Shown here piece by piece: positions 10,405 to 39,375 of a stretch of 64,000 nucleotides of DNA (the first letter of the stretch is position 1; each line of letters starts with the position of its first letter). Location of the stretch: contig JAPYXD010000714.1 of assembly GCA_030998225.1 (NCBI GenBank), positions 7,192,001-7,256,000 of the forward strand. The letters run 5' to 3'. A program made the translations under genes and the position numbers. This DNA comes from Diplolepis rosae. Its lineage: Eukaryota; Arthropoda; Insecta; Hymenoptera; Diplolepididae. A model generated the notes under the pieces. It had not been told where the DNA came from. It saw nothing but the letters and a program-made list of their open reading frames with translations, and ran no database searches.

Positions 10405-11149
10405 AGCAGATGCTTTCGTAAAAAATTTATTTGCATATTTGGATCACCGAAATGAGTACTTACTGAACAAGGCAGAGGTTTTAAAAGTAATTTATTGAAA
10501 AGATTGGCAAAATGTTTTAGACTTAAACAATTTCGTACCACAGCTTTTCACACTCAATCAAACGGCTCATTAGAACGTTCACATCGTGTTTTAGGAGAAT
10601 ATCTCAAACAATTGGTTGCAAAAAATTCAGAATGGGATAATTGGCTTGAACTAGCAATGTTCTGGTATAATACTAGTGTACATGAAGGCACAAAATGCAC
10701 ACCCTATGAATTGCTTTTTGGTAAACTGGCTCTTGAACCTTCCAGTGAACCTTTATAAAAACAAGAAAAATTACAAACATATTATTATTTAATAACATAT
10801 TATTACATAACAATATTATTACATAACATATTTAATAACATATTATTTAGTTAATTTCGTAACACAACTACATGAAATGCGAACACAAGCAAGAGAGAAT
10901 CTTATTTCAGCAAAAGAAAAATCGAAATTATATTATGATAAGAAAATAAATCCTTTAGAAGTAAAAATTGGAGATAACGTATTTTTATTAAAAGAAGGTA
11001 AAATTAAAAAACTTGACAGCCATTATACAGTGCCTTATGAAATATTGGAAGTGTTAGGAAAAGAGAATGTCAAAATAAGCTACAAAGGCAAACCTACTGT
11101 AGTTCACATTAATAGACTAAAACGATCACATGTGCAAGTACAAAATTAA
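10405..11149 (+). pseudogene. E2 copy: Ty3/gypsy integrase (core and GPY/F C-terminus)
   Basis: Begins in mid-core with frameshifted 'VLTEQGR': the second catalytic Asp is Glu here (gaa). It continues in frame from about 10495 through 'TAFHTQSNGSLERSHRVL', which holds the catalytic Glu, and 'TPYELLFGK'. A stop at 10756 and an AT-rich ATAACATATTATT expansion (10770-10860) interrupt it. The last part (10877-11149) is the C-terminal GPY/F module ('HYTVPYEILEVLGKENVKI', then 'VHINRLK'); the Gly of GPY is Val. Integrase joins the cDNA to host DNA. RT, protease and gag of this copy are missing. The same segment occurs in E4 at 23580-26340. Confidence 0.88.
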
Positions 11150-11274
11150 TTAAAATGAAACAAAATATCTTTACTTTAATTATAAAAATATATATCTTAC
11201 ACATAAAATAAAAAATATATATATAAAACAAAATAAAAATGAAATTTCAGACATAACACATTATTCCAGATATA

Positions 11275-11514
11275 ATGGAACAAATTCATCGCAAACGCAT
11301 AGATGATCTCATTGAAATAGTTCCCTGTTTTATCGACATGGTAGCTCTCTGGCCATATTTAATTCAAATTGGAATTTTTAACCAAGACGACTGTAATATT
11401 CCCAAGTGGAGCAGAAACCTAAACAATCCAGAAATAATAAAAGATATTTTTTCAACAATCAAAACAAAAGAACCGGACGCATATAAAAATTTAATTCTCA
11501 GCTTATGGCTATGA
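11275..11514 (+). CDS. E2 copy: CARD-like small protein
   Basis: A 79-residue intact frame between integrase and glycoprotein 1. Its ATG is five bases after a splice-acceptor-like TTATTCCAG. The pattern 'IHRKRIDDLIEIV', then 'LWPYLIQIGIFNQDD', then 'IIKDIFSTIKTKEPDAYKNL' followed by 'LSLW' follows the six-helix spacing of a caspase recruitment domain: basic helix 1, L-x3-L-x4-G-I/L helix 2-3, K-x-x-P-x-A-[FY] before helix 6. It is most like CARDs of insect Dronc/Dark-type proteins. There is nothing else in the protein, so it would be a CARD-only protein that could block apoptosome assembly; this is inference. Decayed copies lie in the same position at 17409 and 26470. Confidence 0.55.
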   Translation: MEQIHRKRIDDLIEIVPCFIDMVALWPYLIQIGIFNQDDCNIPKWSRNLNNPEIIKDIFSTIKTKEPDAYKNLILSLWL

Positions 11515-11680
11515 AATCACATTGCCATAGCCGACATGTTGGATATAATGAACTAGGAACGCAGAATACAAAAAGTAAATCAATAACTTCACAAATATAC
11601 ATATGTAACGATAAAACATTTTTCTATTCTTATATTACAAAGCAAAATAAGCTGCTAATTGGAACCTCCTTTTTCCAGAG

Positions 11681-13486
11681 ATGGGATTACGAGGCTTCCT
11701 TTTGGCACTGCTCACTTGCAACTTCAACTATATAACAACAGTCTACGCCATCATAGGATTCGATTGCCGTTTAAATCTATCAAATATTACATTATCTTTA
11801 CTAGAGGTTGGAGAATGTGATCTACCTCGATCTCAAGTACATGTTGAAAGAACTTATATAAAACTTTTACAATTAACTTGATTTTCAAATACAAAAGTAA
11901 TACAATGCAAAATAGAAATTCGACGCGCCATCTATCATTGTGGTATGCATTCTCACAGTTCCATAGTAGCAAATGGCCACAGTGAATATATACATGATGT
12001 TACACGAGATCAATGTAATCAACTGCACACAATAGGAACATTTTTAGTAACCCATTTTCTTCAGATATTAAAGTTAAAAGTAAATGAAACTTCATTTCAT
12101 AGCGTTACTTTAGCAGGTTCTGTAACACCTAATGGAGACTGTACTAGTACACAATTTTCTGACCCATACGGAACATGGAATAATGTCGTAGTCCAAGCAA
12201 TATTTAAAATAACTTTACAAGAACATTACGCAACTATTCATTTAAATTCAAATAAAATTGCATTAGGATCTGGAATAAAATGCACAGTTTCAGACACATT
12301 CTGTACAGACGTAGAATATGGACAAACATTCTGGGATACGCTACCTAATGACGTATGTAATTTTAACAAATATGAAATTATATATGAAGGACCAGCACAT
12401 AAAACATATGACAACACGAAAGACAATTCTGAAACCTTTTATTCTTTAACGACTGAAGATATAACCTTCATACTGGCTGAAAAAACAAGAAAACCAGTTT
12501 GCAGTTACGTTTCAATACAAACCGAACATACAAAATTATTAATTTTTGGAACCAGACCTGGAAATTCATTTTTAGAAAATAAACATTTAGAAGTTCAAAA
12601 TATGGACATTTTTACAAACGTTAACTCTAAATTTATATATGTGGAACGACATATACGCACTGAAGTAAATAGACTTTGTCACGATGTTCTTACTCAACGA
12701 TGCATACTTGAACAGCTATTTTTTAGAAATACATTAACCATAGCAACCCAATCACCAGACGAATTTGCATATCATTTAATGAAAGTCCCAGGACATATGT
12801 CAGTAATTGCAGGAGAAGTAGTACATATTGTAAAATGTATACCGGTTGAAGTAAAATATCGCAAAACTGAAGAATGTTATCTACAACTACGAATATTTAG
12901 AGGTAATCAATCTGATTTTGATAAACTACGAGATCATATTATGTTTCCCGCAGAAAAACCAATGATTCTAAATTCTTTAGCTAGAGAAATAACAGGACAT
13001 CCAACTATTAGTCAAGGAATATCATTAACGAATTTATTTAATGAAGATGTAATTGAAAAAATTGCTGAATCCGCATGGGGTAAATTTTGGACAATTTTTA
13101 CAAGTTTTGGAACTACTAGTGCAGGCCTAATTGGATTAATAATAATAATTAGAGGGATTAAATTGATAGCGGATACCATTATTCATGGATATGCACTACA
13201 CAGATTATTTGGATGGTCTCTCCATCTACTAGGAGCCTTCTGGGATTCGGTCACTAACCTCTTATCACACTTAGGTTCCCATCGACCTCCTGCACCTCCT
13301 GCTGAGAGCCATCAAGAACTGCTAACAGCTTCAGCGCCACAAAGCTCGAAAGAGGCACCTAAAAGTCCATCGTATTACGCAAATACTACTTCAGGTAAAG
13401 ATCACAATAATACAAACACAACTCTTTATCCTCACTCTGAACTAAAAGAAGAACTTAGTAGAACCCACTACTCTATCCAAATCTAA
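11681..13486 (+). pseudogene. E2 copy: envelope glycoprotein 1, mononegavirus/chuvirus-like
   Basis: 601 codons in one frame with a single internal stop at 11879-11881; the E4 copy has Gly at this codon. The ATG follows CCTTTTTCCAG by two bases. Residues 1-23 form a signal peptide. The ectodomain has many conserved Cys ('GFDC', 'VGECDLP', 'DQCNQLHTIGT'), a membrane segment lies near residues 475-495 ('GLIGLIIII'), and a Pro-rich tail of about 100 residues follows. The layout resembles class III-type glycoproteins of chuviruses and related negative-strand viruses, which insect LTR elements have captured more than once, rather than the F-type Env usual in errantiviruses. Such proteins mediate membrane fusion. 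Family assignment is by pattern only. Confidence 0.65.
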
Positions 13487-13496
13487 CATCTTCAGA

Positions 13497-14234
13497 ATGT
13501 CGCATGTTCCTTTTACAACCTTACTAAACAAAATTATTCAACAAAGAGGAGATCCACCCCTCATTTATGAGATGCTCATTGAACAAACCAATAATAATGA
13601 ATGTCTATTTCACGTTAATTTACAATATAAAAATTATATAATAATAAATAGTGGCAAAGATAAAGAAAATGTAAAGCAAAAGGTAGCACAAAATTTATAT
13701 AATGCCTTAATTAATGAATCAAAGGAAACAAATCAAAACGTCCAACCAAATTCTATTAGTAAAAATTGCAAAAAATTAAACGAAATTTGCGCTCAAAATA
13801 AATTTGAGTATCCAAAGTATACAGTATTACGAATAAAAACCTCATCAAAAGACTCAACATACATAGCAATTTATTTCATTAACAACATTAAACAAATAGG
13901 AATAGCAAACTCGATAGTAACAGTTAAGGATTTTGCTGCCATAAAAGTTATTAATCCTTTTTCACATAAAGACGAGAAATGTGAACTAAGTTTGATAAAC
14001 TCACTAGAACATTTGCATGTAACAATTCAGGAATCATCTGTAAACGATCCAAAACCTTCAACGAGTAGCCAAATAACAAAATCTATTACTTCAAATAACA
14101 ACCGTGTTAAAAATACAAATTCATATAAAATTAAAACAAATAATAATTCTACTGCATCATCTTTCTCTACGAAAAACTTCAAAAAATGTTTTAAATGCGG
14201 ATATAGACCTCCCAACCAGTACAATAAATTCTAA
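13497..14234 (+). CDS. E2 copy: tandem dsRNA-binding-domain protein
   Basis: A 245-residue intact frame starting 10 bases after the glycoprotein stop, with the ATG one base after ACATCTTCAG. Residues 5-73 read as a dsRBD: 'LLNKIIQQRGDPPLIYEML', an F-x-V strand, then 'GKDKENVKQKVAQNLYNAL' as the C-terminal basic helix. Residues 91-152 form a second, weaker dsRBD ('LNEICAQNKFEYPKYTVL', 'FAAIKVI') that lacks the KKxAK basic patch. An Asn/Ser/Thr-rich linker follows, and the protein ends in a half zinc knuckle ('CFKCG'), so the C-terminus is probably truncated. Proteins built this way bind dsRNA without sequence preference; a role as RNA-silencing suppressor is inferred. Confidence 0.65.
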   Translation: MSHVPFTTLLNKIIQQRGDPPLIYEMLIEQTNNNECLFHVNLQYKNYIIINSGKDKENVKQKVAQNLYNALINESKETNQNVQPNSISKNCKKLNEICAQNKFEYPKYTVLRIKTSSKDSTYIAIYFINNIKQIGIANSIVTVKDFAAIKVINPFSHKDEKCELSLINSLEHLHVTIQESSVNDPKPSTSSQITKSITSNNNRVKNTNSYKIKTNNNSTASSFSTKNFKKCFKCGYRPPNQYNKF

Positions 14235-14271
14235 TATAAACATTCCATACCGATTCAGGAAATCAACTGCA

Positions 14272-14857
14272 ATGGAGCATTACTACGACGAGCCTACATA
14301 CGTACCAAGTTACCAAAAAAAAAATACAGAACAGACTTCATGGGATTTTTAAATCATGTAGAAATTTTAAGAAACTTTACGATAAAATATGGATTGCCGT
14401 TACCGCAATATACAGTCTATCCTGACCCAAATTCGAAAATAAAGTCATTTTTTTTTTTGCACAAATTAATATAAATGAACATTTTGTTATACAAGCCGGC
14501 CCTACTAGCGAATTAGCTGAAAATAGAGCAGCATTAAAATTATTGTTACTACTAATGAGATCATACTATTTTTGCGACGAAAAATTTTATAATAATGATG
14601 ATAAAAACATGCAAAAAACCAAAAATCAAAGTATTCAAACCGATCCAAGACCAAAATTAATACCTTGGGAAAATTCCTGTAGATTTTGTAACACTCAAAT
14701 GCATGCCACAAAAGAGTGCCGTAGACGAAATATTTTTAAAGTAGACAAATCAACCCAATTTCCCCCTCCAGTTCCACCAAGAAACTCCTCAACATTTAGT
14801 AGACTTTTTTCCCCTTTTCTCCAAAAAACTTCTAGACCTAATTCCAACCATATGTAA
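14272..14857 (+). pseudogene. E2 copy: dsRBD plus CCHC zinc-knuckle protein
   Basis: ATG 13 bases after an acceptor-like ATACCGATTCAG. Frame changes occur in a run of ten A (about 14315) and a run of ten or so T (about 14449). Allowing for them, it encodes a dsRBD: 'VEILRNFTIKYGLPLPQY', then 'NEHFVIQAGPTSELAENRAALKLLLLL'-type C-terminal helix (about 14485-14560). The second half carries a CCHC knuckle, Cys-x2-Cys-x4-His-x4-Cys, in 'CRFCNTQMHATKEC' (about 14682-14723), and a Pro-rich end. Copies occur at 17711-18186 and 29281-29745. Homopolymer indels make this copy non-functional. Confidence 0.65.
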
Positions 14858-14916
14858 ACATCCTATTTTTTTCAATATCAATCCTACTTTTCTTTTTCAG
14901 CCTTCCGAGAAACCTA

Positions 14917-15990
14917 ATGAATTTCCTTAATCAACTAGCATCCAGAGTGTATTTAATTTTAATTCCACTCCTTTTCTCCAAAGCAGAAAAATAGTTCATA
15001 GACTCACAATTTTCTCATTCTTTAGGGATTTATTTTGAACCGACTTCAAAAGTTCGTCTTTTTTCTGAAAAATATCATTTTTATCTTATATTGATGTCTT
15101 TCAGCCAGACGTACTTAGATACAAAATAAGAGATTTCTCACATATATTATGTGAATATTGCATACGTTCAAATATTGCCGATAATTGTTATTTATACGAT
15201 CATCAGACGCAACTTGATTTCATAGAACAACGAATCAACTATTTTTTTGAAGAAATATCATTTATATCTAGACAAGCTCGTAATATCAAGAATATTTCTA
15301 AAACTAATGATCCATTCCTGCAACAGATACAAAAAGTACTTTTAGAATTGAGAATGAGACAGGAAACCTCCCTTTACTGGCCCAAAGAAAATTTATTTCT
15401 ACTCCCAAACCCATTTTTCCAAAAAGTTACAAATCTTTCTTCAAAACTTGACAACATTATGACGTACAAAAAATTCACCTATATCGAATATTAGCAGCAA
15501 ATTGGCTCAAAGACCTGCATGGAATTTCTCAATCTTTTCTATTACTCCTTGACCAACTTACAGAAGCTATTACCCATGCCGCAACTAATTTATGGCACCC
15601 TATGCTACTTCCTGATACCTTTTTAGACTTCAAATCCAACAAAGAAGACCCACACCTTTCAACATCCCTTTTTTCTATGGTCCTTCCATTTTCTAAACTA
15701 CAATACTTCTTATTTTATAAGTACTTGATTTTTATTATGACTATACCAATCCCATCTGCTAAAGAATTCCAATTATTTAAACCACATCCAATTCCAATAC
15801 ATCTCAATTTCAATACTGACGTAATTTCCTCTATTTACATAAAACCTCAAAATTTTTATCTCGCTATTTCTTCAAATAACCAATCATACTTTACAACAAA
15901 TGAAAATTTCCTCAATGCATGTTATCAAAATGAATTCCAAACATTTTGTCACCCACCAAGATGTATATCTAATATAGATAAAAATCCTAT
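14917..15990 (+). pseudogene. E2 copy: F-type envelope glycoprotein 2, broken
   Basis: ATG 16 bases after CTTTTTCAG. A hydrophobic signal peptide ('VYLILIPLL') is followed by a stop at 14992, then 'GIYFEP', the start of mature F-type Env proteins in errantiviruses and baculoviruses. Frame changes near 15090 and 15470 interrupt a helical central part. The segment 15602-16036 continues with 'NENFLNACY' and a Cys pair typical of the ectodomain. At about 15990-16005 it jumps into the dsRBD gene, so the membrane-proximal end, both Cys-rich genes and the start of the dsRBD gene are deleted here. Better-preserved halves are at 18247-19135 and 33713-34362. Confidence 0.6.
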
Positions 15991-16004
15991 ATATTGTAAT
16001 ATCG

Positions 16005-16349
16005 CTAGGGTTACAACAAGAGCTACCACCATTTGAAGCGACTTGCGAAAATTTTAAAGATAATTTAACCTATGCTTGTATTGGGGAACCTGCGACCCAA
16101 AAGAAAGTAGCCAAACAGAACGCAGCAGCTAAAGTCTTGGAAACACTTTCCACGAAATATGTATTTTTAGAAGAGAAATTAGAAAAATGCTTAGTAACAA
16201 AATCAAAATTTTTAACAATAAGTGATAAAAGCGGTAGAAGAGCTTTACAGAAATGGACCAATGCATGTGAAAGGTGTTTTCAAAGAGGACATTTAGCTCA
16301 TAACTGCCGCAACTCTTTACGTAATAAAAAATATAAAAATAATTCCTGA
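16005..16349 (+). pseudogene. E2 copy: C-terminal dsRBD plus CCHC protein, N-truncated
   Basis: Open from within a dsRBD ('ELPPFEATCENFKDNL', 'ATQKKVAKQNAAAKVLETL') through a Lys-rich linker to an intact CCHC knuckle 'CERCFQRGHLAHNC' at about 16267-16308, then a basic tail. The canonical KKxAKxxAA helix that contacts the dsRNA major groove and phosphates is fully conserved. The first third of the dsRBD is lost at the deletion junction with glycoprotein 2. This is the last gene before the 3' UTR and LTR. Confidence 0.75.
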
Positions 16350-16804
16350 GAAAAAAAAAAAATTTCTTTTACTAATCTACGACATTATGAAATTACGTTT
16401 TATATTACAGCATGTTATTTATAATTTACGAATATGAAATAAAAAATCATTGAAGTATTTAGTTATATGACAAAAAATCATATGTAACCTTATATTAAGT
16501 TCATACTATTTAAAAAAAAAACTGTAATTATTTATAACAAAAAAATTATAATATTAAGATATTATAAATTTTTATGACATCAAAAAAAAAAAATGTTCGA
16601 TATTGGAATGTATCAAATAGTAAAACAAATAGTAAAAATAGTAAAAAATTGTAAAGCAGACGCTGAAATGAATGTTGTGTTTATCATTCATATTTTGTTA
16701 CTATATCAGAAAAATAATTTGAATGTATCTCTTCAAAAACATTAATGAATGTATTCATCTTCCAAAGATTCGATCGCGGATGCTTCACCTCCGCGCTCGA
16801 ACTA
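16350..16804 (+). other. 3' UTR of E2
   Basis: AT-rich non-coding stretch shared with E1, E3 and E4. It ends in a conserved 'GATTCGATCGCGGATGC' block just before the polypurine tract. Confidence 0.6.
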
Positions 16805-16814
16805 GGGGGGGAGG
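16805..16814 (+). promoter_or_regulatory. Polypurine tract of E2
   Basis: GGGGGGGAGG run directly before the LTR start. Confidence 0.75.
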
Positions 16815-17408
16815 TGTAACGTCCCGCGACGTATTTGAATGTACTATAGGCACGGGCTAGGTCTAGAGAGAAATCTGGAGAAATTACTAAAAGAGAGAGA
16901 AAACCACCTATTGAAAAGAGATATATTACTATGTCACACGCTGCGGGAGACTGCGCAATGCGTGACGTCACCAAAAAATATAATATAAAAAGGACACGCC
17001 GCCAAGGGAAAACTAATCTTGTGTGCAGAATTTATGTGTGGCACCTGTGGGAATCGCATCTCAGTCACACCTGTGAGGATTATACTGAAGTGAACTTAAG
17101 AAACTAATAAGGTACAGAACATCTCTCTCTCTCTGTCTCTGTCTCTCTCTCCCTTGTTAGTTTGTTATTTTACCAATTGCCCGTGCCATATTGTATGCAT
17201 CGATTTGTTATTTGGATTGACTTTTATATTTAACTTTAGAATTTTATAATATTAAATTTATAATTCAAATAAACTTAAATTGTCTTACTTTATAATCATT
17301 GTGTCTTTTCATTGACTTATCCTCATCCCTAAGCGAGGATCATTCGATCCTAACTTAAAACGAGGAATCTTCGATCAAATAAAGTATTTACGTACTTGTG
17401 ACGTAACA
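16815..17408 (+). repeat. LTR of E2 (subfamily B), complete
   Basis: 594 bp from TGTAACGTCCCGCGACG to TGTGACGTAACA; the two ends are imperfect inverted repeats (TGTaACGTC / GACGTaACA). It has a TATA-like 'AATATAAAAAGG' near 16983, a CTCT microsatellite near 17125 and AATAAA near 17267. Subfamily B shares the first 30 bp with subfamily A but diverges after it. It abuts a CARD-gene fragment of E3 directly at 17409, so E2 appears to sit inside E3. Confidence 0.85.
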
Positions 17409-17672
17409 CCTATTTTATCGACATGGTAGCTCTCTGGCCATACTTATTTAAAACTGGAATTTTTAAGCAAGATTACTGCAATATTCCCACATGGAGCAGA
17501 AAACTAAATAATCCAGATACAATAATGGATATTTTTTCAACATTAAAAACAATATAAATCCTTATAAAATAAAAAGAAATAATATTTGTACCACATCGCC
17601 TTTTTCTGGAAAAAGCTTTAAGAAATATTTTAAATGCGGATATAGACCCCCCAATTACTACAATAAGTTCTA
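17409..17672 (+). pseudogene. E3 copy: CARD-gene remnant joined to tail of tandem-dsRBD gene
   Basis: 17409-17555 matches the middle and end of the CARD gene at 11325-11480, with stops. It then jumps, with a deletion of all glycoprotein 1 and most of the tandem-dsRBD gene, to the half zinc knuckle ('KCGYRPPNYYNKF') matching 14180-14232. Confidence 0.7.
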
Positions 17673-17710
17673 ATATAAATATCCCATACCGATTCAGGGA
17701 ATCATCTGCA

Positions 17711-18186
17711 ATGGAGCATTACTATGATGAGTCTACCCGCGTGCGAAGTTACAAAAAAAAGTTATGTAGAACAGACTCTATGGGACTTTTAAACCACATG
17801 GAAATTTTGAGAAATTTTACGATAAAATATGGATTACCGCTACCACATTACATCGATTATCCTGATCCAAATTCTACTACAACTATTAATTAGATCTTAT
17901 GATCTTTGCGATGAGGATTTTTACAATAATACCTGTAAAGGGAAAAGAAAAACAAAAAATCAGTGTTCAAAGTGATCCAAGACCAAAATTAGTATCATGG
18001 AAAAAATCATGTAGATATTGTAACACTCAAAAGCATGCTACAAAAGAGTGCCATTGACAGAATGTTTTTAAAGCTGATAAATTAACACAATTTCCCCCCG
18101 ACTTCCACCTCGAAACTCCACAACATTTAGTAGTCAATTTTCCCCTTTTTTCCAAAAAACTTCTAGACCTAAATCAAACCATGTGT
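17711..18186 (+). pseudogene. E3 copy: dsRBD/CCHC protein, internally deleted
   Basis: The N-terminal half of the dsRBD is open for 60 codons ('MEILRNFTIKYGLPLPHY'). A deletion near 17880 removes the basic C-terminal helix; the CCHC knuckle region ('CRYCNTQKHATKEC') is still readable near 18011-18052, followed by a stop. Confidence 0.65.
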
Positions 18187-18246
18187 AAACATCCAATTTT
18201 ATCCAATACTAATTCTTTTTTCTTTTTCCGCCATTCGAGAAGCATA

Positions 18247-19135
18247 ATGAAATTCCTATACCAACTACCTTCTGGCGTATACTTGATGTTAATTCTGTTT
18301 TTTACTTCTGAAGCAAAAAATTTGTATATTAATTCACAGTTTTATCACTCTTCTGGTATTTATTTTGAACCAATTTCAAAAATACGTCTATTTTCCGAAA
18401 ATTATAGTTTTATCTCTTATTTTGACATTTTGCAACCAGAAAACATAAAATATAAATAGTAGATATTTCTCACATACTTTATGAACATTGTGTACTTACA
18501 AATATTGCAAATAACTGTAATATATATAATCACCACACACAGCTTGAATTTATGAAAAAATGTATAAATTATTTTCTCGGAGAAATTCCATTTCTATCCG
18601 GACAAGCTCTTAACATCACTAATATTCCCATAAATAGTGATCCATGTTTACACCAAATTCAAAAAGTTCTTCTACAGTCAAAAATAAGACAAAAAACTTC
18701 TCTTTATTGGCCTAATGAAAATATGTTCCTACTTCCAAATCCATTTTCTAAACAACTTGAAAATCTTTCATCCAATTTCAACAACGTTACGATGTACAAA
18801 GACTGGCATAAATCTCAAATTAACCCAAATTTTTACATTTATAAAATTCTTGCAGCAAATTGGCTAGTGGACTTGCATGAAATATCCAAATCCTTTCTAT
18901 CACTGCCTGCACAACTTACGGAAGCTATAACCCATGCCGTATCAAATTTATGGCATCCCATGATGCTTCCAGATACCTTCCTGAACTTTAAATCTAACAA
19001 AGAAGACTCTCACTTTCCAACGTCTCTTTTTTCTATGATCATTCCATTTTCTAAAATGAGATACTTTCTAGTACTACTTAATTTTTACTATGACCATACC
19101 AATTCAATCTTCTAAACAATTTCAAGTATTTAAAA
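18247..19135 (+). pseudogene. E3 copy: F-type envelope glycoprotein 2, N-terminal two thirds
   Basis: Signal peptide ('GVYLMLILFF') and the mature start 'SSGIYFEPISKIRLFSENY', then a stop at 18457, and a second open stretch from 18552 to 19115 with an Asn-rich, Cys-poor helical region. No obvious polybasic cleavage site is visible. The 'GIYFEP' start plus the following W/Y-rich strand is the typical opening of errantivirus Env (baculovirus F-like class I fusion proteins). After about 19135 the sequence jumps to the tail of the first Cys-rich gene, losing the fusion-proximal part and transmembrane segment. Confidence 0.6.
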
Positions 19136-30974: not shown

Positions 30975-31500
30975 TAAGCTATTGTAAAGCTATCGTAAAG
31001 TAGTAGCATTATAACTCATGAATGAGGGAAAAAAAATTATAAACATGTTTTTATACTTATTCTACGTTAAAAATAACGTTAAAGGTATTTGAAATATGCA
31101 ATAATTTTATTTATTAGCGCTAAAAATTTAAAAAACATAATACCTGTCATTAAAGGCAATACAGTGGTTCACCTTTTGTGGAACGTCTCCACCGTTAAAG
31201 TTGACCATTGGTTGAAGTGAGACACAACTATACTTTCATCTCACTCTAACAAATAGTCAATCCTGACGGTGAAGACATGGAATGTGATAAACCACTGCAC
31301 TGCCTTTGATGACAGGTATAAGGTTTTTTTAATTTTTAGCGTTAATAAATAAAATTAATGCATATTTCCATTACCTTTTAACGTTATTTTTAACTAGAAT
31401 AAGGATAAAACCATTTTGAATACTTATTTTGCCTCATTCATGAGTTATAATGCTACTTTTCGATGGCTTTACGATAGCATTACGCTACAGCGTAAAGATA
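30975..31500. repeat. Imperfect palindrome (foldback), about 520 bp
   Basis: The left arm (about 30980-31222) and right arm (about 31235-31495) are inverted copies: 'GTAGCATTATAACTCATGAA' on the left mirrors 'TTCATGAGTTATAATGCTAC' on the right, and 'ATACCTGTCATTAAAGGCA' mirrors 'TGCCTTTGATGACAGGTAT'. The loop is only about 12 bases. MITE-like. Confidence 0.75.
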
Positions 31501-32184
31501 GCGTTCAGCCAATTCGCTAGGGTTCTCTTTGATTCGTTTTGTTGACCTGCTGCTAAAATTAGTATTGATTTTTTTTCTCGTAAAAAAAAGCACTTTTCCA
31601 AAAACACGAGTAAGGAATATTTGCATTATTCCAATAAAATAATTTACCAATCGACTCACAGTTTCAAAATTTAAACTGTAAACGTATCACCCAACTGCAA
31701 TTCAATAATGATTTGATACTTATTTTATATGGATAACTTGAAATGAACAAATCGATCAATAATTTGAAACAATTCACGCGATAAACCGGTTCGAACTGCG
31801 TATTGTTTAATTGATGGCTGTCTGAGGGTGCAGGAGGGTTAATAAAAACATGTATGTTTATTTTTATGAAAATGAACGAGGCTAAAGTTGTGTTCCACAA
31901 AAGAATACTACAATTTCGATCGATATAGGTTTTAAAGTCGCAGCGCAGTATATAATAAAAAACGTGACTGCACGACACTCTTTCATCATACAAAGTTTTT
32001 ATTTGCTAAAACGAATACGTCACAATATATCTGCTTTTCCGTGATCATTTATGGGAAAAAAATAACAATCCCAACCAAGGTTAAAAATCTGAAATATAGA
32101 ATTTTTCAGCTCATCGATAAACATTCTTTTCAAAACGGCGCTATAGCATTGATTGAATGTGTTATCACTCATTAAAAAAGGCGT
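31501..32184. other. Gene-less spacer between foldbacks
   Basis: Non-coding; ends in a 10-bp perfect hairpin GTGTTATCAC / GTGATAACAC (32159-32192). Confidence 0.4.
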
Positions 32185-33709
32185 GATAACACTCGAATCG
32201 TGGTTTTTTTAGTATACGGTGAAACACGGAGGTTTAACGCCCCGCGATGCTAATCTGAAAGTTCGAACCTTTTATTTTTCTCACGAATGTTGTTAAATGC
32301 ATACAATTTTTATCTGTGACTTTGGGCCTTTTTTCTGCTTACGAAGGTTGTGAAATCAGAAAAATAACTAAGTTTGGCAAGCGATGTGACTAAATTTTTG
32401 CGATTTATAATTACTCTCGCATTACTTCCGCGTTGCCCAGAATATCATGTAATTTTTTTTCTTTCACTTCGGCCCTATTTTCTGTTTACAGAGGTTATGA
32501 AATCAGAAAAAAGGCGAAGTTCTGCAAGAGATGTGACTAAATTTTTGCTATTGGTAATTACTCTCGCATTACTTTTGTATAAAAAATTCTTGATCTTGAA
32601 AAAACAATGCGATATAGCGTAGATTTATTTTTATACAGTTACCGTTCTACGTTGGCCTTTCAAGTCCTTAGCGACTTCTTGTATGAAGATAAACTCAAGA
32701 TTAACTGAATATAGATAACTGATTAAACTTCTTCAAGGTAGGAATTAGGTTCGGAGTTAAAAAAAGTTTATTGCCAAAATCTGAAACTGCATATAGTAAC
32801 TTTAAATCTCTTTATTACGAATTGATGGACCATAAAAAATAATTTGTTAAAAAAAAAATACATGCTCTTCCATTAGTTTAAACTGTATATTAAATGCAAA
32901 TTTCAGTTACTGAATGAAACCATGTTTTTTTGATACTGAATTTCAACTTCTACCAACTTTTCAAAATCCTCTCCATCGAATTTCATGTTTATTAAAACAA
33001 ACTGAGATGAAAGTGCGTGGAATAATATTTCTTTCGGATTTTTATGCACAAAGTAAAGTTGCTAAAAATCCTTTCGATTTTTATTTTCATTCAACTCTAC
33101 TTCACTCAATCAGTAGTTCAAATTATATATATATTAAAAGAAAAATCGTCTCTTCAAGAAGCCGCTACGGACTTGAAAGGCCAACGTCGAACGGTAACTG
33201 TATAAAAATAAATCTACGCTATATCGCATTGTTTTTTCAAGATCAAGAATTTTTTATACAAAAGTAATACGAGAGTAATTACCAATAGCAAAAATTTAGT
33301 CACATCGCTTGCAGAACTTCGCCTTTTTTCTGATTTTATAACCTCTGTAAACAGAAAATAGGGCCGAAGTGAAAGAAAAAAAATTACATGATATTCTGGG
33401 CAACGCGGAAGTAATGCGAGAGTAATTATAAGTCGCAAAAATTTAGTCATATCGCATGCCAAACTTAGCCTTTTTTCTGATTTCACAACCTTCGTAAGCA
33501 GAAAAAAGGCCCAAAGTCACAGATAAAAATTGTATGCATTAAACAACATTCGTGAGAAAAATAAAAGGTTCGAACTTTCAGATTAGCATCGCGGGGCGTT
33601 AAACCTTAGCCTTAAGTTAAAACATTGAAAATTTTATATGAAGGGGGGGGGGGGGGATTTCACTCCGTGTTTCACCGTAGACTAAAAAAACCACGATTTG
33701 AGTGTTATC
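32185..33709. mobile_element. 1.5-kb foldback element with long inverted arms
   Basis: Ends GATAACACTC ... GAGTGTTATC. The left arm 32185-32670 is repeated inverted in 33165-33709 ('CGCCCCGCGATGCTAATCTG' versus its complement near 33590, and the 'CAATGCGATATAGCGTAGAT' block in both). The arms carry a 12-G run on the right side. The roughly 500-bp unique centre (32670-33165) has no recognised gene. Confidence 0.7.
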
Positions 33710-33712
33710 TAT

Positions 33713-34362
33713 CGTACTTTACAACAAATGAAAATTTTTGCAATGAATGTCATCAAAAGGGATTCTAAACAATTTGTCACCCACAGAAATCTTTATTTAA
33801 CACCAACAACAATACTGTTGATGAAACATCAATGTTTTTAATTTCTCAACCATACAAATGTAAATTCTTCATCACTTTTGACGAATATCCTTTTCTAACA
33901 CCATTGCAATTTTATCATGGATGGCTATGCTCAACAAGTTTCCCGCAACAAATTTTCTTATCATGTCTAAAAAACTCTAAGACCTCAATCACACTCCAGG
34001 GAATAGGAATTTTTCAAACAAAGTCAGGTTGCAATCTTGATTCATCAACTCCATATTACCATCTCCAAAACAATTTGAATATAGTGGATAATTCAATTCC
34101 AGTTAGCAAAGCAACCATTTTTCTTGCTATAATTTTACCATTTCTATATAATATTTCTATCTAAGAGTGACACTTACTAAAAAAGGTATTAATTCTTCTT
34201 CAGCAAAAAGAAGACATGTTATTATCAACCTTCAACAACCAAGTCTTCATCCTTAAAAAATAAGCAAACATTCAAAAAATTATTCCATCTATTTCTATTT
34301 CTAGTGCACTGGAATTAACTTTAGCACTAATTATCATCACTTTACTTATGATTAAAATTTAG
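33713..34362 (+). pseudogene. E4 copy: F-type glycoprotein 2, C-terminal part
   Basis: Resumes with 'YFTTNENFCNECH', has a stop at 33767, then an open stretch from about 33790. It contains 'WLCST', 'LSCLKNS' and 'LQGIGIFQTKSGC', which is the conserved G-x-G-I...C block of F-type Env ectodomains, and ends with a hydrophobic C-terminal membrane anchor ('LTLALIIITLLMI') and a stop at 34360. These features match errantivirus/baculovirus F-type envelope proteins and identify glycoprotein 2 as different in type from glycoprotein 1. Confidence 0.65.
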
Positions 34363-34470
34363 GATTGGTATTATTAAAAATTCAAAAAATATCTTAAAAA
34401 ATAAACAACACACCAACACGTATTGAACTTGTAAAATAACTCCTTTAAGCTCAGTGACAAAACCTTTACT

Positions 34471-34541
34471 TGCCGAGACGAATCCGAGGCGCGATCAGTC
34501 CTGCGAGCACTGTCGCGAGTCTCGCAATGTCCCGAATTATG
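34471..34541 (-). repeat. Fragment of the short inverted-repeat element (- strand)
   Basis: Inverted match to the 'GAGACTCGCGACAATGCTCG' and 'GACTGATCGCGCCTCGG' core of the copy at 48455-48997. Confidence 0.7.
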
Positions 34542-34865
34542 TATTATTATGTAGACGATGGGATAATTTTATTAAGATGAGAAATTTGTGTTCCAGTCGG
34601 TTGAAATAGTCGATTCTCCGATCCCAGGTTTTAGAGAGGATTTGTTAAGGCGATTCCCCTTCACTTTTTACATTCGTTGAACTCGGGGTTGAATTATAAC
34701 TGGACCAACTGGCGGTTAATAATCTGATGAGACTGGACTAGACTGGACTGAAATCGCAGTATAGAGATGATGACACTGGACTGACTGGACTGACTTCTAT
34801 TGGAACCTTTGATTTTTATAGGCCTTTGAAAGGCCAACTATGGTGGGAGTAAAAAACATGGTGTA

Positions 34866-35763
34866 CAGTATGTTCCCCAAGAAAAGGTACGCGTTTTCTC
34901 AGAAAGTTTCGAAGATTTTTATTCCGTTCTTTTATTTCCTGACTGTACGTTTAAAAAGCTACGGCGGAACCACCGATTCGTTTTAGTCTTGTTCGAAGTG
35001 TCAGATATTACACAACATTAGGGTATGAGTGCTACATCTACATCTACATCTTTCATACTCAGCTGCTGCCAAAGTGCTTAAAAAGTCTAAGCACTTCGTG
35101 CAAATGTGGGTGAAGCGGTAAAGGGATAAAAAACTGTCGATGACCTGCCAGGGATAGGAGAGATGCGAGCAACGTCCAGTAAGGAGGATAAGATGATCGT
35201 TGCACTGTTCAAGCGCAGCCCAACTCTCCGGTCGCGTGAAGCCAGAGCTTTTTACTGAGAACCTCAACGCTCAAAAAATGCTTGAAATTTACGAACATGG
35301 CCTTCTGAGATCTGCAAAGAAGATGTTTGGAGCCAACAATAAGGATTGGATCCTTCAAGAGGACAACGACCTTAAACATCGCTGTCACCCCTGCACGTCC
35401 TGGAAGGCGGAAAATGGCATCACGACCTTGGACTGGCTTTCACAATCTCCTGATGCGAATCCAATAGAAAATGTGTGGAGTGTCGTGAAGAGGAAACTTG
35501 CAGGAAGGCGTGCATTCACCCTGAAGCAGCTCTTTCGACGAATTAAGGAGGCATGGCGCTCTCTACCTACAGAATATGCCGGAAAACTTGTCGAGAGCAT
35601 GCCCAGAAAGTGCCAGGCCATTATTCAGAACAACGGCGATTTGACAGTTTATTAGGCGAGTGCGCCTTAGTGCTTTATGTGCACTGTTGTGCCTAAAAAG
35701 AAAAATTAGGTTTTCATCAAAACTTTCAGAGTCACCGCCTACCTTTTCTTGTGGAACAGACTG
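34866..35763 (+). mobile_element. Tc1-like element, internally deleted
   Basis: About 900 bp between TA dinucleotides (34864-34865, 35764-35765). Ends CAGTATGTTCCCCAAGAAAAGG and its inverted counterpart (CAGTCTGTTCCACAAG when read on -). It sits inside the type C LTR. Confidence 0.8.
35200..35655 (+). pseudogene. Tc1-like transposase, C-terminal catalytic half
   Basis: Open for 151 codons. After a short degenerate leader it carries 'WILQEDNDLKH' (second catalytic Asp) and 'WLSQSPDANPIENVWSVVKR' with the catalytic Glu, then the usual 'CQAIIQNNGDLTVY' C-terminus. Upstream (35030-35195) scraps of the N-terminal helix-turn-helix remain, but the middle with the first Asp is deleted, so the element is non-autonomous. 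Confidence 0.82.
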
Positions 35764-36023
35764 TACCACCTGTTTCATATTTGGTACTAAAGCTTAGGAT
35801 TGGATGAGTTGCCTTCTCCGCTGACTCACGCTCCGATAAAATTTATTACCTAGCATTAATGTCAAGGCCAAATATATCAATTCTATTTTAATCTGCCTTT
35901 CGATTTTTACGATCTTCCTATTTCTTATTAGATCCTTAATTTGTTTGTTACTCTAGGTGGTAGAGTCGCGAGACGTGACACTTAGTAGAACTGATCCTTT
36001 TCAAAAGAAATTTCTGTAGAAAA

Positions 36024-36428
36024 ATGATACCAACTCTAGCAGAACCTATTGTAATCCATCTTGGACCAGTAGGCAGTGTATGTGCGCAAGAATATCCGAT
36101 AACTTACGCACATTTATTAAATAGCTATTGCTTTTATTTGGAACCGTTGGCATTATTTTTATATTATAATCATGAAACACAAAAAAGATACTGTCAATTT
36201 TCTTTCGAAAAACTAGATCAAGAGACTCAAAAATGTGAAATTTTTACCTCGTGGCATCCCATTTGTAAATTATAATTTATATATATGAACTGTCACAGTT
36301 GCGAAGAAATATCAATTAGTCTGCGACAAAGAGCACCTAGTTGTAAGGCATGCATCGAGCAATATTTAAACAACAATCTAGAAATGAATCACGGAAAAGA
36401 AATATTAGTAAAAAATATCCTTGCATGA
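36024..36428 (+). pseudogene. E4 copy: Cys-rich protein 1
   Basis: ATG four bases after an acceptor-like TTTCTGTAG. The first 83 codons are open (Cys-containing, aromatic-rich). After a stop at 36273 the same gene goes on in another frame from 36284: 'NCHSCEEIS', then 'APSCKACIEQYL' and 'KEILVKNIL', ending at 36426. The CxxC...CxxC end is paralogous to Cys-rich protein 2. No known family. Only the tail is present in E3 (19152-19245). Confidence 0.5.
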
Positions 36429-36486
36429 TTTATAACCATCTACCTTGAACGCATATAAATCAAGAATGAATATATATATAAAATAT

Positions 36487-36960
36487 TGTAAATTCACTCT
36501 TAGAAAAATGCTGCCCCGAGAATTTGAACCAATCGAAGGAGAAGAAGTTCAAGCAAGAGAGCAAGATGTTAAACCGCGTTTTGAACATCGTTTATGGTCG
36601 GCATATTATTGCACAACCCTAATCGAAGATTTTTATAAGAAAGTTATTAAAAAAAACTTGTTTGCGGGGAATTTTATAGCACGAAACTTACCTTCTTTGA
36701 GTCCAAGGTGCCATTACCCGTCGAAATAGAGCACATCGTCACAAAAGACTTATACTATATTTTAAAGCTCTCTAGCCTCGACTGCTGCTCCCTTTGAAAT
36801 AGAATAATTTTTTACCTGTGGTAAAGAACAGATCTATGCCTAAATTGTGCCGAACATTTAATAGATCTATACTAACAAAAAGCATTTTATAACGACGTCG
36901 ATTCCGAAGCTATGATCATTATTCATAACCACCACTGAAAAAAACATATATATATTGGAT
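36487..36960 (+). pseudogene. E4 copy: Cys-rich protein 2 remnant
   Basis: ATG five bases after TTCACTCTTAG; 'MLPREFEPIEGE' matches 'MLPQDFESIQAE' at 19377. The frame stops at 36727; decayed sequence continues to the mariner insertion at 36964. Confidence 0.6.
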
Positions 36961-36963
36961 CTA

Positions 36964-38214
36964 TAACTTAATTTGTGCGGTTTGCAACGAGATGGCGTAA
37001 CTTGATTATTATTCCATCGTTCCAATATTCCGAACATGCTTTGGAAAGCTGCAGTCATTGTGCGTCTTCTTCAAGACGCATAAACAACAATAATTTTTTT
37101 ACTCAAATATGTCGAACATTGTGCCTGAAAAAGTGTTTTTACGGGGAGTTCTTCTTCATTACTTTAATATAAAGAAAACTGCGGCCGAAAGTCATTGTAT
37201 TTTGGCGGAAGTTTATGGTGAACATGCTCTAGCTGAGCGAACGTGCCAAAAATGGTTTGCACGATTTAAAAGTGGTCATTTTGGCTTGGAAGACGAAGAA
37301 CGTCCTGGGAAGCCAAAAAAGTTTGAAGATGAAGAACTGGAAGCATTAATCGATGAATATTGTTGCCAAAAACAAGGAGATCTCGCTGAATCTTTGGGAG
37401 TCACTCAAGCAGCCATTTCGAAACGTTTAAAAGCAGCCGGAAGCATTCAAAAGCAAGGAAATTGGATTCCACATGAACTCAAGCCGAGAGACGTTGAAAG
37501 GCGGTTTTGCATGTCCGAAATGCTGCTGGAACGCTACAAAAAGAAGTCATTTTTGCATCGTATTGTTACTGGTGATGAAAAATGGATCCATTACGACAAC
37601 CCCAAGCGGAAAAAATCATATGTGAAACCCGGCCAACCAGCCAAATCAACGGCAAAGCCGAATATTCATGGCGCGAAGGTAATGCTCCGTATTTAATGGG
37701 ATCAGAAGGGTGTGCTGTATTATGAGCTGCTAAAACCGGGTGAAACCATCAATGGAAAACGCTACCGAACACAATTAATCCTTTTAAGAAGAGCAATAGC
37801 TGAAAAACGCCCGGAATATGCGACCAGACACGAGGCAATATTTTTCCAACATGACAACGCTCATCCCCATGCTGCTATTCTGGTTGAGAACTATTTGGAA
37901 AACAGTGGATGGGAAGTTTTACCCCACCAGCCTTATAGCCCAGACCTTGCCCCTTCTGACTACCAGTTGTTCCGGTCGATGCAGAACGTACTCACTAGAA
38001 TACGGTTCTCATCAGAATAGGGTATCAAAAATTGGCTTGATTCATTCTTGGCCACCAAGCCGGCGCAGTTCTTTTGGGATGGAATCCACAAATTGCCAGA
38101 AAGATGGGAAAAAGTCATAGCTTTAGATGGGCAATACTTTGAATAATACTATCGTACATGTTTTGCTTAAATAAACGTTCAAATTTTGAAAAAAAAACCG
38201 CACTAAATAAGTTA
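36964..38214 (+). mobile_element. Mariner element
   Basis: 1.25 kb bounded by TA (36962-36963 and 38215-38216), with inverted ends TAACTTAATTTGTGCGGTTT and (on -) TAACTTATTTAGTGCGGTTT. Inserted in the E4 copy between Cys-rich gene 2 and the last dsRBD gene. Confidence 0.88.
37109..38146 (+). pseudogene. Mariner transposase (DD34D), two nonsense codons
   Basis: Full family length (345 codons) in a single frame with in-frame stops at 37694 and 38018. N-terminal helix-turn-helix region ('ILAEVYGEHALAERTCQKWF'), 'GVTQAAISKRL', then the catalytic motifs 'TGDEKWIHYDN', 'HDNAHPH' and 'YSPDLAPSDYQLF', and the usual ending 'LPERWEKVIALDGQYFE'. It cuts and pastes itself at TA sites. Only two point changes inactivate it, so it is among the youngest insertions in the intron. 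Confidence 0.92.
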
Positions 38215-38526
38215 TATTTTTCTTATTATAATAAAGAAATGTCAAATCACTTTCATTAAATAACTTTCCCTTTTTTTATTTTATTTTTTTCAGTCGCTGT
38301 CCAGAACCATATAACTCATATTTCAAACTGCGATAGTGAATTAATTTTTATATCATGTATCAACAAATAGGCCATTTTTCTACCTGCACAGAACCTATAT
38401 TTGAAAACATAACGACCAAATAGAAAAAAAACTGAATGCAAGACAACATTTTCATATAATAAAACCAACATATCTCTTAATAAACTTACAGATAATTTTC
38501 TAAACATTTTTTTGCATATCAGGGCA
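38215..38526 (+). other. Gene-less E4 sequence after mariner
   Basis: AT-rich; holds the acceptor-like region before the next dsRBD gene (TTTTTGCATATCAG at 38519). Confidence 0.4.
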
Positions 38527-38820
38527 ATGTCCGTGCAAACAAGATGCTTACCGAAAGGTACTGCTGTACAATTTTCGAACGAGATAAGCATAGAATATGA
38601 TTTCTCCGAACTCTCACATATTGTAGTCACTTGGAAAACACCAAGAACTGCCGCCGTTCCAAGCAACTTGCGAAATTTTTAAAAATAAAATAACTTTTTC
38701 TTGTTTCGGTGAACCATCCCTCAAAAAAAATCTGCAAAGCAAAATGCAGAAACTGAAATGAGGAAATGCTTTCCAACCAATATAATTTTAGAAGAATTTC
38801 CAGTCTTCCTCAATGGAAAA
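38527..38820 (+). pseudogene. E4 copy: dsRBD/zinc-knuckle protein, decayed
   Basis: Aligns with 19847-20140: 'EISIEYDFSEL', then with frame errors the 'ELPPF.ATCEIF' strand and a damaged basic helix. No knuckle left. Confidence 0.6.
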
Positions 38821-39217
38821 TACAAAAATATTTTTAACCAACGATAATAATAATTATAAAATATTCCTGAAAAACTGAACAAATAATGGTATTAGATTAA
38901 GTACCTTACTGTATTGTTCTTGTTCTACAACTAAACATTAGTTAAGAACGAGAAGAATTCCTTTATTCATTATATATTCAAATTTTTAATCGAACAAAAT
39001 TTATTTTTTACTATAAATACAATAAAAGTTTTTCATAAAAAAAATGTAAATTACGTCAACTAAAATTATGTGAAAAAAATGCCAGTTATATAAAAAACTG
39101 TTAACATAAAATTTTTTGTAACTACATTTCAAATCATGCAAATTAAAAGCAATGTACTCTTCTTCCGAAGATTCGATCGCGGATGCTTCACCCCCCCCCC
39201 CCGCCGCTTGAACTAGT
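38821..39217 (+). other. 3' UTR of E4
   Basis: AT-rich; ends with 'GAAGATTCGATCGCGGATGC' as in E2, plus a C12 run. Confidence 0.55.
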
Positions 39218-39225
39218 GGGGGGGG
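39218..39225 (+). promoter_or_regulatory. Polypurine tract of E4
   Basis: GGGGGGGG run just before the LTR start. Confidence 0.65.
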
Positions 39226-39375
39226 TGTCACGTCCCGCGACATATTTGAATGTATCATAGGCACAGGCTAGGTCTGGGGAAAAATCTGGGAAAGTTACTG
39301 AAAAGAGAGAAAACCACCTATAGAAAAGAGAGGTACCATATAACTACGTCACACATAGCGGTATACTGAAACGTG
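39226..39375 (+). repeat. LTR of E4 (subfamily B), truncated
   Basis: Starts TGTCACGTCCCGCGACATA and follows the E2 LTR for about 150 bp; homology then ends, probably where the Penelope element was inserted. Confidence 0.75.

What the first reader, a model, noticed from the sequence alone, without database searches (positions are those of the whole stretch)
10405..39375. A complex, retrovirus-like gypsy family with at least eight accessory reading frames
Three independent, nested copies (E2 10405-17408, E3 17409-21250, E4 23040-39375) overlap in different segments and give one consistent order after integrase: CARD-like, glycoprotein 1, tandem dsRBD, dsRBD+CCHC, glycoprotein 2, Cys-rich 1, Cys-rich 2, dsRBD+CCHC, polypurine tract, LTR. 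Known insect errantiviruses carry only gag, pol and env. The same order in separate copies argues that these genes belonged to the element itself and were not collected by chance in this locus.
Basis: partly seen in the sequence, partly recalled or inferred. Interest (0 to 1): 0.92.

Follow-up and report, generated by a model that had tools for sequence, protein, structure and literature searches.

The report
Giant wasp retrovirus with accessory genes
A wasp genome holds many copies of an unusually large retrovirus-like element that carries two unrelated virus-type entry proteins plus small proteins that look made to handle double-stranded RNA and cell-death signals, which suggests an insect retrovirus with its own tools against host defence.

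Summary
E2-E4 are broken relics of a family that is numerous elsewhere in the genome; the host is a cynipoid wasp by COI. Of ten further copies read, nine have two ~762-bp LTRs (99.1-100% identical, four pairs 100%) and 4-bp target duplications; six are ~17.6 kb. Order: gag-like ORF, Ty3-type pol, CARD, chuvirus-type glycoprotein (2.9e-247), tandem dsRBD, dsRBD+finger, baculovirus-F-type glycoprotein (1.3e-22), two Cys-rich ORFs, dsRBD+CCHC, polypurine tract, LTR. Glycoprotein 1 has at least 79 other copies. A second subfamily keeps the order; dN/dS is 0.12-0.35 in the eight genes that could be computed. A distant lineage has integrase-CARD-glycoprotein 1, its CARD above Pfam's cut-off. So the accessory block belongs to the element. 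I read it as a complex, errantivirus-like endogenous retrovirus with two fusion proteins and a module against RNAi and apoptosis; the function is inferred, not shown. Precedents: chuvirus envelope capture (Anakin) and giant gypsy elements (Burro). I did not see this combination in ten literature searches.

The parts
8034..9285 (+). E1: subfamily-B fragment, part of the last dsRBD+CCHC gene, polypurine tract and part of a 3' LTR (LTR start 8703)
   Evidence: 82% to a subfamily B copy; LTR start read
10395..17408 (+). E2: subfamily-A-like copy from integrase to 3' LTR, lacking Cys-rich 1 and 2
   Evidence: colinear blastn to a subfamily A copy
10456..11149 (+). E2 integrase, two frames (10456-10758, 10811-11149)
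   Evidence: homologous to pol of other copies; Integrase_p58_C 6.8e-6, 26.5 bits against cut-off 27
11278..11514 (+). E2 CARD ORF, C-terminus lost
   Evidence: PF00619 E 0.073 here, 0.018 in a longer copy, 3.7e-7 in lineage D
11651..13486 (+). E2 glycoprotein 1 (chuvirus-type fusion glycoprotein), interrupted by an in-frame stop near 11880 and with about 222 bp missing near 12910
   Evidence: PF24664 E 1.6e-169 for 11882-13483; missing stretch seen
13446..14234 (+). E2 tandem dsRBD ORF, 262 aa stop to stop
   Evidence: dsrm 1.9e-6, two stretches; a 262-aa frame at this place in 9 of 9 two-LTR copies
14235..14857 (+). E2 dsRBD + finger ORF, two frames
   Evidence: homologous to the 264-aa ORF of another copy, dsrm 1.1e-3, below cut-off
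14842..16036 (+). E2 glycoprotein 2 (baculovirus-F type), broken and truncated
   Evidence: Baculo_F 1.1e-8 for 15452-16033; 1.3e-22 in another copy
15978..16349 (+). E2 last dsRBD + CCHC ORF, N-terminus lost
   Evidence: zf-CCHC_3 1.2e-4 and dsrm 2.2e-3, both below cut-off
16800..16814 (+). E2 polypurine tract
   Evidence: G-rich run directly before TGTAACGTC
16815..17408 (+). E2 3' LTR (594 bp), TGTAACGTC...GACGTAACA
   Evidence: 92-94% to the subfamily A LTR at both ends
17409..21251 (+). E3: subfamily-B copy, CARD fragment (17409-17557) joined to the dsRBD-finger region, glycoprotein 2, Cys-rich 2, last dsRBD, LTR
   Evidence: 90% to a subfamily B copy over 17875-20436
18456..19115 (+). 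E3 glycoprotein 2 fragment
   Evidence: homologous to subfamily B glycoprotein 2; no Pfam hit itself; the frame before it, 18058-18459, Baculo_F E 0.011, below cut-off
19329..19739 (+). E3 Cys-rich 2 ORF, 136 aa
   Evidence: 150 of 150 scored genome candidates match, window copy included
19823..20218 (+). E3 last dsRBD ORF
   Evidence: dsrm 1.2e-6, above cut-off
20677..21251 (+). E3 LTR, subfamily-B type, truncated at its 3' end
   Evidence: sequence; 86% to the subfamily B LTR region
22389..39368 (+). E4: subfamily-A-like copy from reverse transcriptase to the start of the LTR, cut up by other sequence
   Evidence: ordered matches to a subfamily A copy
23010..23453 (+). E4 reverse transcriptase fragment
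   Evidence: RVT_1 2.5e-18
26844..27584 (+). E4 glycoprotein 1, N-terminal part
   Evidence: PF24664 6.9e-36 for 26844-27329
36015..36944 (+). E4 Cys-rich 1 and 2, broken
   Evidence: 73% to a subfamily A copy over both genes; no Pfam hit
39226..39368 (+). E4 start of 3' LTR
   Evidence: 83% to the subfamily A LTR; TGTCACGTCCCGCGA read

Best explanation
The window holds relics of a large Ty3/gypsy-type endogenous retrovirus of a cynipoid wasp that has moved very recently. Shown: a ~17.6-kb element with ~762-bp LTRs, 4-bp target duplications, a gag-like ORF, RT-RNase H-integrase, then eight further genes in fixed order: CARD, chuvirus-type fusion glycoprotein, tandem dsRBD, dsRBD+finger, baculovirus-F-type glycoprotein, two CxxC-rich proteins, dsRBD+CCHC. 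Inferred: the full-length transcript makes Gag and Pol, and spliced or other subgenomic mRNAs make the rest. The two unrelated fusion proteins serve entry by different routes or steps (for example soma to germline). The dsRBD proteins sequester viral dsRNA or act as decoys for Dicer complexes, like R2D2/Loquacious. The CARD protein blocks apoptosome assembly as a caspase-9/Dronc-type decoy. It would then be an independently evolved 'complex retrovirus' of insects. My odds: anatomy 0.95, counter-defence role about 0.55.
For: Paired LTRs in 9 of 10 copies, 4 of 9 pairs identical; 4-bp duplications in 9 of 9 and one gene order; RT 2.3e-35, RNase H 2e-38, integrase 1.7e-20 and 1.6e-12; RT nearest Ty3 among solved structures, 1.4e-97; an 18-mer that fits a primer-binding site 14 nt after the LTR in 9 of 9 two-LTR copies; glycoprotein 1 2.9e-247, glycoprotein 2 1.3e-22, dsRBDs 1.5e-11 and 9.3e-7; CARD 3.7e-7 in lineage D at the same place, 7 of its 8 PDB rows caspase chains, best E 0.13; tandem dsRBD best PDB rows Loquacious and R2D2, E 0.005-0.03; dN/dS 0.12-0.35 in eight of nine genes compared, the ninth saturated; at least 79 other copies of glycoprotein 1, 54 with an open frame of at least 769 aa and no stop in the row for the N-terminal two thirds.
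Against: No function was tested. The PDB resemblances of CARD and dsRBDs are weak; the last dsRBD is nearest a plant Dicer (0.0015). The middle dsRBD is below Pfam's cut-off and lacks the basic motif of the last one (by eye). The CARD of subfamily A itself is below cut-off. Cys-rich 1 and 2 have no family (Cys-rich 2 no PDB row), and both structure predictions failed (pLDDT 47.7 and 31.8). No transcript, splice or particle evidence. Gag rests on a zinc knuckle just under cut-off and protease on a visible motif plus E 0.18. ORF1 has 626 aa in only 4 of 9 copies, the last dsRBD at least 150 aa in 5 of 9. Two of the 54 open glycoprotein 1 copies show a stop in the row for the C-terminal part, and that row is not listed for every copy. 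dN/dS rests on one A-B comparison per gene; three B frames hold stops; ORF1 was not compared. The ten copies were chosen from the listed plus-strand rows, not at random.
Confidence: 0.78

Rival explanations
1. The accessory block is a separate integrated virus (for example a chuvirus or a DNA virus) that landed beside gypsy fragments in this locus.
For: Glycoprotein 1 is of RNA-virus type, and chuvirus-type glycoprotein insertions are frequent in insects including Hymenoptera (PMC10084718, results section read).
Against: Ten other copies align colinearly over the block and 9 of 10 are LTR-bounded with target duplications. The order is kept in subfamily B and, over the part read, in lineage D. 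No RNA-virus polymerase or nucleoprotein among the ORFs scanned.
Confidence: 0.01
2. The dsRBD, CCHC and Cys-rich proteins serve the element's own RNA (nuclear export, packaging, translation or reverse transcription), like Rev or the Cer1 CERV protein, and are not counter-defence factors.
For: The last dsRBD gene ends in a retroviral-type zinc knuckle (4.2e-5, below cut-off); three of its nine PDB rows are HIV nucleocapsid, E 0.4-0.5. Many downstream genes imply a need to export partly spliced RNA; CERV of the LTR retrotransposon Cer1 is a precedent (PMC10309623, start of abstract in a listing).
Against: Tandem dsRBDs nearest to Dicer partners beside a CARD fit counter-defence better; neither role was tested.
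Confidence: 0.3
3. The extra genes are passengers picked up by transduction and kept only because they do little harm.
For: LTR elements do pick up ORFs downstream of pol (PMC6431247, passages).
Against: dN/dS 0.12-0.35 at dS up to about 2; tandem dsRBD frame of 262 aa in 9 of 9 copies; CARD kept at 46% identity in lineage D.
Confidence: 0.04
4. The family has been taken over by the wasp, for example to make particles or proteins that act on its prey or plant, as other wasps did with DNA viruses.
For: Wasps have repeatedly domesticated DNA viruses (PMC10259472, start of abstract in listings).
Against: Copies are dispersed over many contigs and carry LTRs, target duplications and near-identical LTR pairs, the pattern of ongoing transposition rather than of a fixed locus.
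Confidence: 0.05

Closest known systems
Insect errantiviruses (gypsy, ZAM and relatives; Metaviridae)
   Same: Ty3-type pol, short target duplications, TG...CA LTRs, an F-type envelope 3' of pol
   Different: About 17.6 kb against roughly 7-9 kb (recalled); a second, unrelated fusion glycoprotein; CARD, dsRBD and Cys-rich genes; a ~556-aa insert between RNase H and integrase with two GRPR motifs
Anakin BEL/Pao retroelements of mosquitoes (PMC7642597, passages)
   Same: An LTR retroelement with a chuvirus-type glycoprotein as envelope
   Different: Pol here is Ty3 type; no second envelope or accessory genes were mentioned in the passages I saw
Gypsy elements with type III fusion glycoproteins in mosquitoes (PMC13172572, passages and figure legends) and chuvirus-type glycoproteins flanked by Gypsy fragments in Hymenoptera (PMC10084718, results and passages)
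   Same: Gypsy pol beside a chuvirus-type glycoprotein
   Different: PMC10084718 reports no clear evidence of capture by Gypsy; here nine LTR-bounded copies show it, with a second envelope and accessory genes
Burro giant gypsy-like elements of planarians (PMC6431247, section 7 read)
   Same: Very large gypsy-like element with env homology and domains linked to apoptosis (BIR, BCL2-like)
   Different: Burro packs most extra domains into one ~4,900-aa polyprotein with env between gag and pol and exceeds 30 kb; here they are separate genes 3' of pol, with dsRBDs, a CARD and two envelopes
Complex vertebrate retroviruses (recalled) and foamy-like endogenous retroviruses of fish, up to 17 kb (PMC6431247)
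   Same: gag-pol-env plus accessory genes
   Different: Ty3-type pol here, unrelated accessory proteins, two envelopes

Membership tests
Metaviridae / Ty3-gypsy LTR retroelement | Pol order protease-RT-RNase H-integrase | tested here: met
   Pfam order along ORF2 of one copy; the protease is only a visible DTGA motif plus E 0.18
Metaviridae / Ty3-gypsy LTR retroelement | RT nearest to Ty3 rather than retroviruses | tested here: met
   Ty3 1.4e-97 against about 1e-38 for the best retroviral chains; no tree was built
Metaviridae / Ty3-gypsy LTR retroelement | Paired TG...CA LTRs with short target duplication | tested here: met
   paired in 9 of 10 copies, 4-bp duplication in 9 of 9
Metaviridae / Ty3-gypsy LTR retroelement | tRNA primer-binding site | tested here: inconclusive
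   18-mer after the 5' LTR in 9 of 9 fits the 3' end of tRNA-Gly as recalled; the tRNA gene search did not complete
Errantivirus | F-type (baculovirus F-like) envelope downstream of pol | tested here: met
   Baculo_F 1.3e-22, 618 aa
Errantivirus | Simple gag-pol-env gene content | tested here: not met
   eight genes 3' of pol
Errantivirus | Furin-type cleavage site in Env | tested here: inconclusive
   no R-x-K/R-R in the one glycoprotein 2 scanned; looser patterns not tried
Errantivirus | RT within the errantivirus clade | not tested
Chuviridae / Jingchuvirales | Monjiviricetes-type fusion glycoprotein | tested here: met
   PF24664 2.9e-247; 46% identity over 72% of the query to Hymenopteran chu-related virus OKIAV146
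Chuviridae / Jingchuvirales | RNA-dependent RNA polymerase and nucleoprotein | tested here: not met
   none among the ORFs scanned
Anakin (BEL/Pao with chuvirus envelope) | BEL/Pao pol | tested here: not met
   Ty3-type pol
Burro-type giant gypsy | Accessory domains inside one giant polyprotein, env between gag and pol | tested here: not met
   separate ORFs 3' of pol
CARD proteins | Pfam CARD above gathering score | tested here: met
   lineage D 30.5 bits against 23.9; subfamily A itself only 15.5 bits, not met
dsRBD proteins | Pfam dsrm above gathering score | tested here: met
   tandem ORF 45.2 bits and last ORF 29.8 bits against 23; middle ORF 19.9 bits, not met

The most novel reading that the evidence does not exclude
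A lineage of complex insect retroviruses, with at least three sublineages in this one genome, that evolved on a Ty3/gypsy backbone: two fusion machines from unrelated viruses and a dedicated counter-defence module aimed at both RNA interference (three dsRBD genes, one nearest the Dicer partners) and apoptosis (a stand-alone CARD), still able to make new germline insertions. Its 3' half also seems to be exchanged between lineages, as in retroviruses.
Probability: 0.5. Interest if true: 0.93.

Novelty: new variant of a known kind. Interest (0 to 1): 0.85.

Why it matters
Insect retroelements are usually thought to need only gag, pol and sometimes env, and to be held down by piRNAs. Here a high-copy, recently mobile element keeps dsRNA-binding and CARD genes under selection. 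That makes it testable whether a retroelement actively disarms silencing and apoptosis, and why it needs two different fusion proteins. It would also show that complex retroviral genomes arose outside Retroviridae.

Tried and rejected
Separate-virus reading: rejected. Passenger reading: disfavoured. Ant as host: my first guess from glycoprotein names, dropped after COI. Viral contigs: two scans, with the tandem dsRBD and glycoprotein 1, confirmed no relative. Structure predictions of the CARD-like ORF and Cys-rich 2 failed, so no fold search was run. Cys-rich 1 and 2 as duplicates: only a weak local match, E 0.004. PHROGs: nothing useful. Rfam and tRNA scans of the window: none. In notes I first called window ORF 19329-19739 Cys-rich 1; it is Cys-rich 2, and one search counts Cys-rich 2. 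RT tree within gypsy: not done. LTR copy count, Baculo_F genome search and tRNA check: asked, never answered.


Full report
What was claimed.

The window. Self-comparison shows the blocks repeated at about 70-93% identity. Pfam names the larger frames: glycoprotein 1 is a Monjiviricetes (chuvirus-type) fusion glycoprotein (1.6e-169); glycoprotein 2 of E2 matches Baculovirus F (1.1e-8); two frames carry dsRNA-binding domains above cut-off, and a third has dsRBD and zinc-knuckle matches below cut-off. The RT fragment of E4 scores 2.5e-18. The LTR start TGT(C/A)ACGTCCCGCGA occurs four times on the plus strand, each after a G-rich tract, and once on the minus strand near 63663.

The genome. The window lies in a 757.7-Mb assembly. 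Its mitochondrial COI is nearest, among named rows, to Parnips, Figites, Trichagalma and Dryocosmus (81-82% identity; an unnamed ENA contig 91%). Parnips and Trichagalma are Cynipoidea, so the host is a cynipoid wasp; the species was not determined. With glycoprotein 1 as query, 80 of 2302 candidates were scored: the window copy and 79 others. Of those 79, 54 have an open frame of at least 769 aa and no stop in the row for the N-terminal two thirds (my count); two of the 54 show a stop in the row for the C-terminal part, and that row is not listed for every copy. All seven other loci returned by that search have integrase, CARD-like frame, glycoprotein 1 and tandem dsRBD in order.

Longer copies. 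I took ten of the 79, all from plus-strand rows and mostly near the top of the list, so not a random sample, each as two adjacent 10-kb stretches read apart. Their downstream stretches align colinearly, one with a 0.3-kb deletion. Nine of ten have two LTRs of 760-764 bp within the stretches, 99.08-100% identical, identical in four; the tenth showed no 5' LTR in its stretch. By my reading of the flanks, 9 of 9 have perfect 4-bp target duplications. Lengths are 17.58-17.64 kb in six and 16.9, 16.2 and 14.2 kb in three. At a recalled rate of about 3.4e-9 substitutions per site per year the most diverged pair would be of the order of a million years old; the identical pairs are younger. An 18-nt primer-binding-like site lies 14 nt after the 5' LTR in 9 of 9; it fits tRNA-Gly as I recall it, unchecked.

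Genes. In long frames taken from several copies: ORF1, 626 aa, with a C-terminal zinc knuckle just under cut-off; ORF2, 1652 aa, RT 2.3e-35, RNase H 2e-38, integrase 1.7e-20 and 1.6e-12, with a 556-aa charged insert holding two GRPR motifs between RNase H and integrase; glycoprotein 1, 774 aa, 2.9e-247; tandem dsRBD, 262 aa, 1.5e-11; middle dsRBD with a CxxC finger, 264 aa, 1.1e-3 (below cut-off); glycoprotein 2, 618 aa, 1.3e-22; Cys-rich 1 and 2, no family; last dsRBD with CCHC, 156 aa, 9.3e-7 (above cut-off) and 4.2e-5 (below). Among the nine two-LTR copies the frames reach: tandem dsRBD 262 aa in 9; Cys-rich 1 136 aa in 8, a 148-aa frame in the ninth; glycoprotein 2 618 aa in 6; middle dsRBD at least 232 aa in 6; Cys-rich 2 at least 164 aa in 5; last dsRBD at least 150 aa in 5; ORF1 626 aa in 4. 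The family thus holds open and decayed genes side by side.

CARD. In subfamily A the match is weak (0.018, below cut-off). A genome search with the CARD family scored 61 of 61 candidates, 37 marked over the cut-off, mostly small frames near 100 aa. Six loci were returned: five belong to a related lineage, D, with integrase (66-76% identity), CARD (46%, 2e-23) and glycoprotein 1 (56-65%) in the same order; the sixth has a CARD with no detectable similarity to it. The D CARD scores 3.7e-7, above cut-off; seven of its eight PDB rows are caspase chains, five named caspase-9, best E 0.13. So the CARD is real, though its partner is not shown.

Second subfamily. Subfamily B (the E1/E3 type) keeps the order from ORF1 to the 3' LTR in one copy read over two stretches; its 5' LTR was outside. 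It has about 2.7 kb between glycoprotein 2 and Cys-rich 1 that the second B copy lacks; that one, read only in its 3' part, has a different insertion. Between A and B, one comparison per gene, dN/dS is 0.18 (pol), 0.20 (CARD), 0.20 (glycoprotein 1), 0.34 (tandem dsRBD), 0.35 (middle dsRBD), 0.15 (glycoprotein 2), 0.12 (Cys-rich 1), 0.13 (last dsRBD); Cys-rich 2 was saturated and ORF1 was not compared. The B frames hold stops in pol (3), middle dsRBD (2) and last dsRBD (1). dS rises from 0.12-0.13 in pol and glycoprotein 1 to 0.28-2.1 further 3', which fits recombination between lineages after glycoprotein 1; the CARD, which lies between them, has 0.22 on 87 codons.

Positions alone. dsRBD hits (150 scored of 1563 first-look candidates) and Cys-rich-2 hits (rows 2-104 of 150 used) make 48 same-strand pairs, 35 at 3.8 kb, against a mean of 0.26 in 200 shifts. 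CARD and dsRBD hits make 3 pairs against 0.1; CARD and Cys-rich-2 hits make none. Host genes among the dsRBD and CARD rows were not removed, and only a tenth of the dsRBD candidates were scored.

Mechanism. Shown: anatomy, recency, selection. Inferred: the dsRBD proteins bind dsRNA or Dicer complexes (tandem dsRBD nearest Loquacious and R2D2, E 0.005-0.03; last dsRBD nearest a plant Dicer, 0.0015), the CARD blocks apoptosome assembly, the two fusion proteins serve entry. The strongest rival is that the dsRBD and zinc-finger proteins handle the element's own RNA.

Novelty. In the listings, passages and sections I saw from ten paper searches, no errantivirus-like element with dsRBD or CARD genes, or with both envelope types, appeared; most subscription papers are not in that library. 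Known pieces: chuvirus envelope capture by BEL/Pao (PMC7642597, passages), gypsy with type III glycoproteins (PMC13172572, passages), Gypsy fragments beside such glycoproteins in Hymenoptera without clear capture (PMC10084718, results and passages), and giant Burro elements with apoptosis domains (PMC6431247, section 7). So I file it as a new variant of a known kind, and a strong one.

Noticed in passing
window 62708-63737, minus strand: A fifth LTR of related type (TGTCACGTCCCGCGA start at about 63663, G-rich tract before it), about 956 bp, from another sublineage; its body lies beyond the window.
   Followed up: partly
window 50200-57220, plus strand: Frames that look like a BEL/Pao element (gag, protease, RT, integrase by eye); not profiled.
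   Followed up: no
window 43313-45082, plus strand: A 589-aa frame that looks like a Penelope-like RT with a GIY-YIG-like end (by eye).
   Followed up: no
window 28608-29180 (-), 35197-35655 (+), 37094-38020 (+), 40964-42379 (-): Transposase-like frames, three of the four places inside E4, that help explain its gaps (DUF4817 for the first and DUF4371 for the last; the rest by eye).
   Followed up: partly
genome G000: A repeated dsRBD frame of exactly 204 aa in 24 of the listed rows, possibly another sublineage; its context was not read.
   Followed up: no
genome G000: Two CARD loci (not among those fetched) have a dsRBD hit 7.1 and 7.3 kb downstream, about the spacing from CARD to the last dsRBD in subfamily A.
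   Followed up: partly
subfamily B (L033, L032) against subfamily A genes: Synonymous divergence rises up to tenfold or more after glycoprotein 1, as if the 3' half had been exchanged between lineages.
   Followed up: partly
window 32230-32681 and 33155-33606: A 452-bp inverted repeat, 97% complementary, with 147-bp internal tandem units, inside the E4 span.
   Followed up: no
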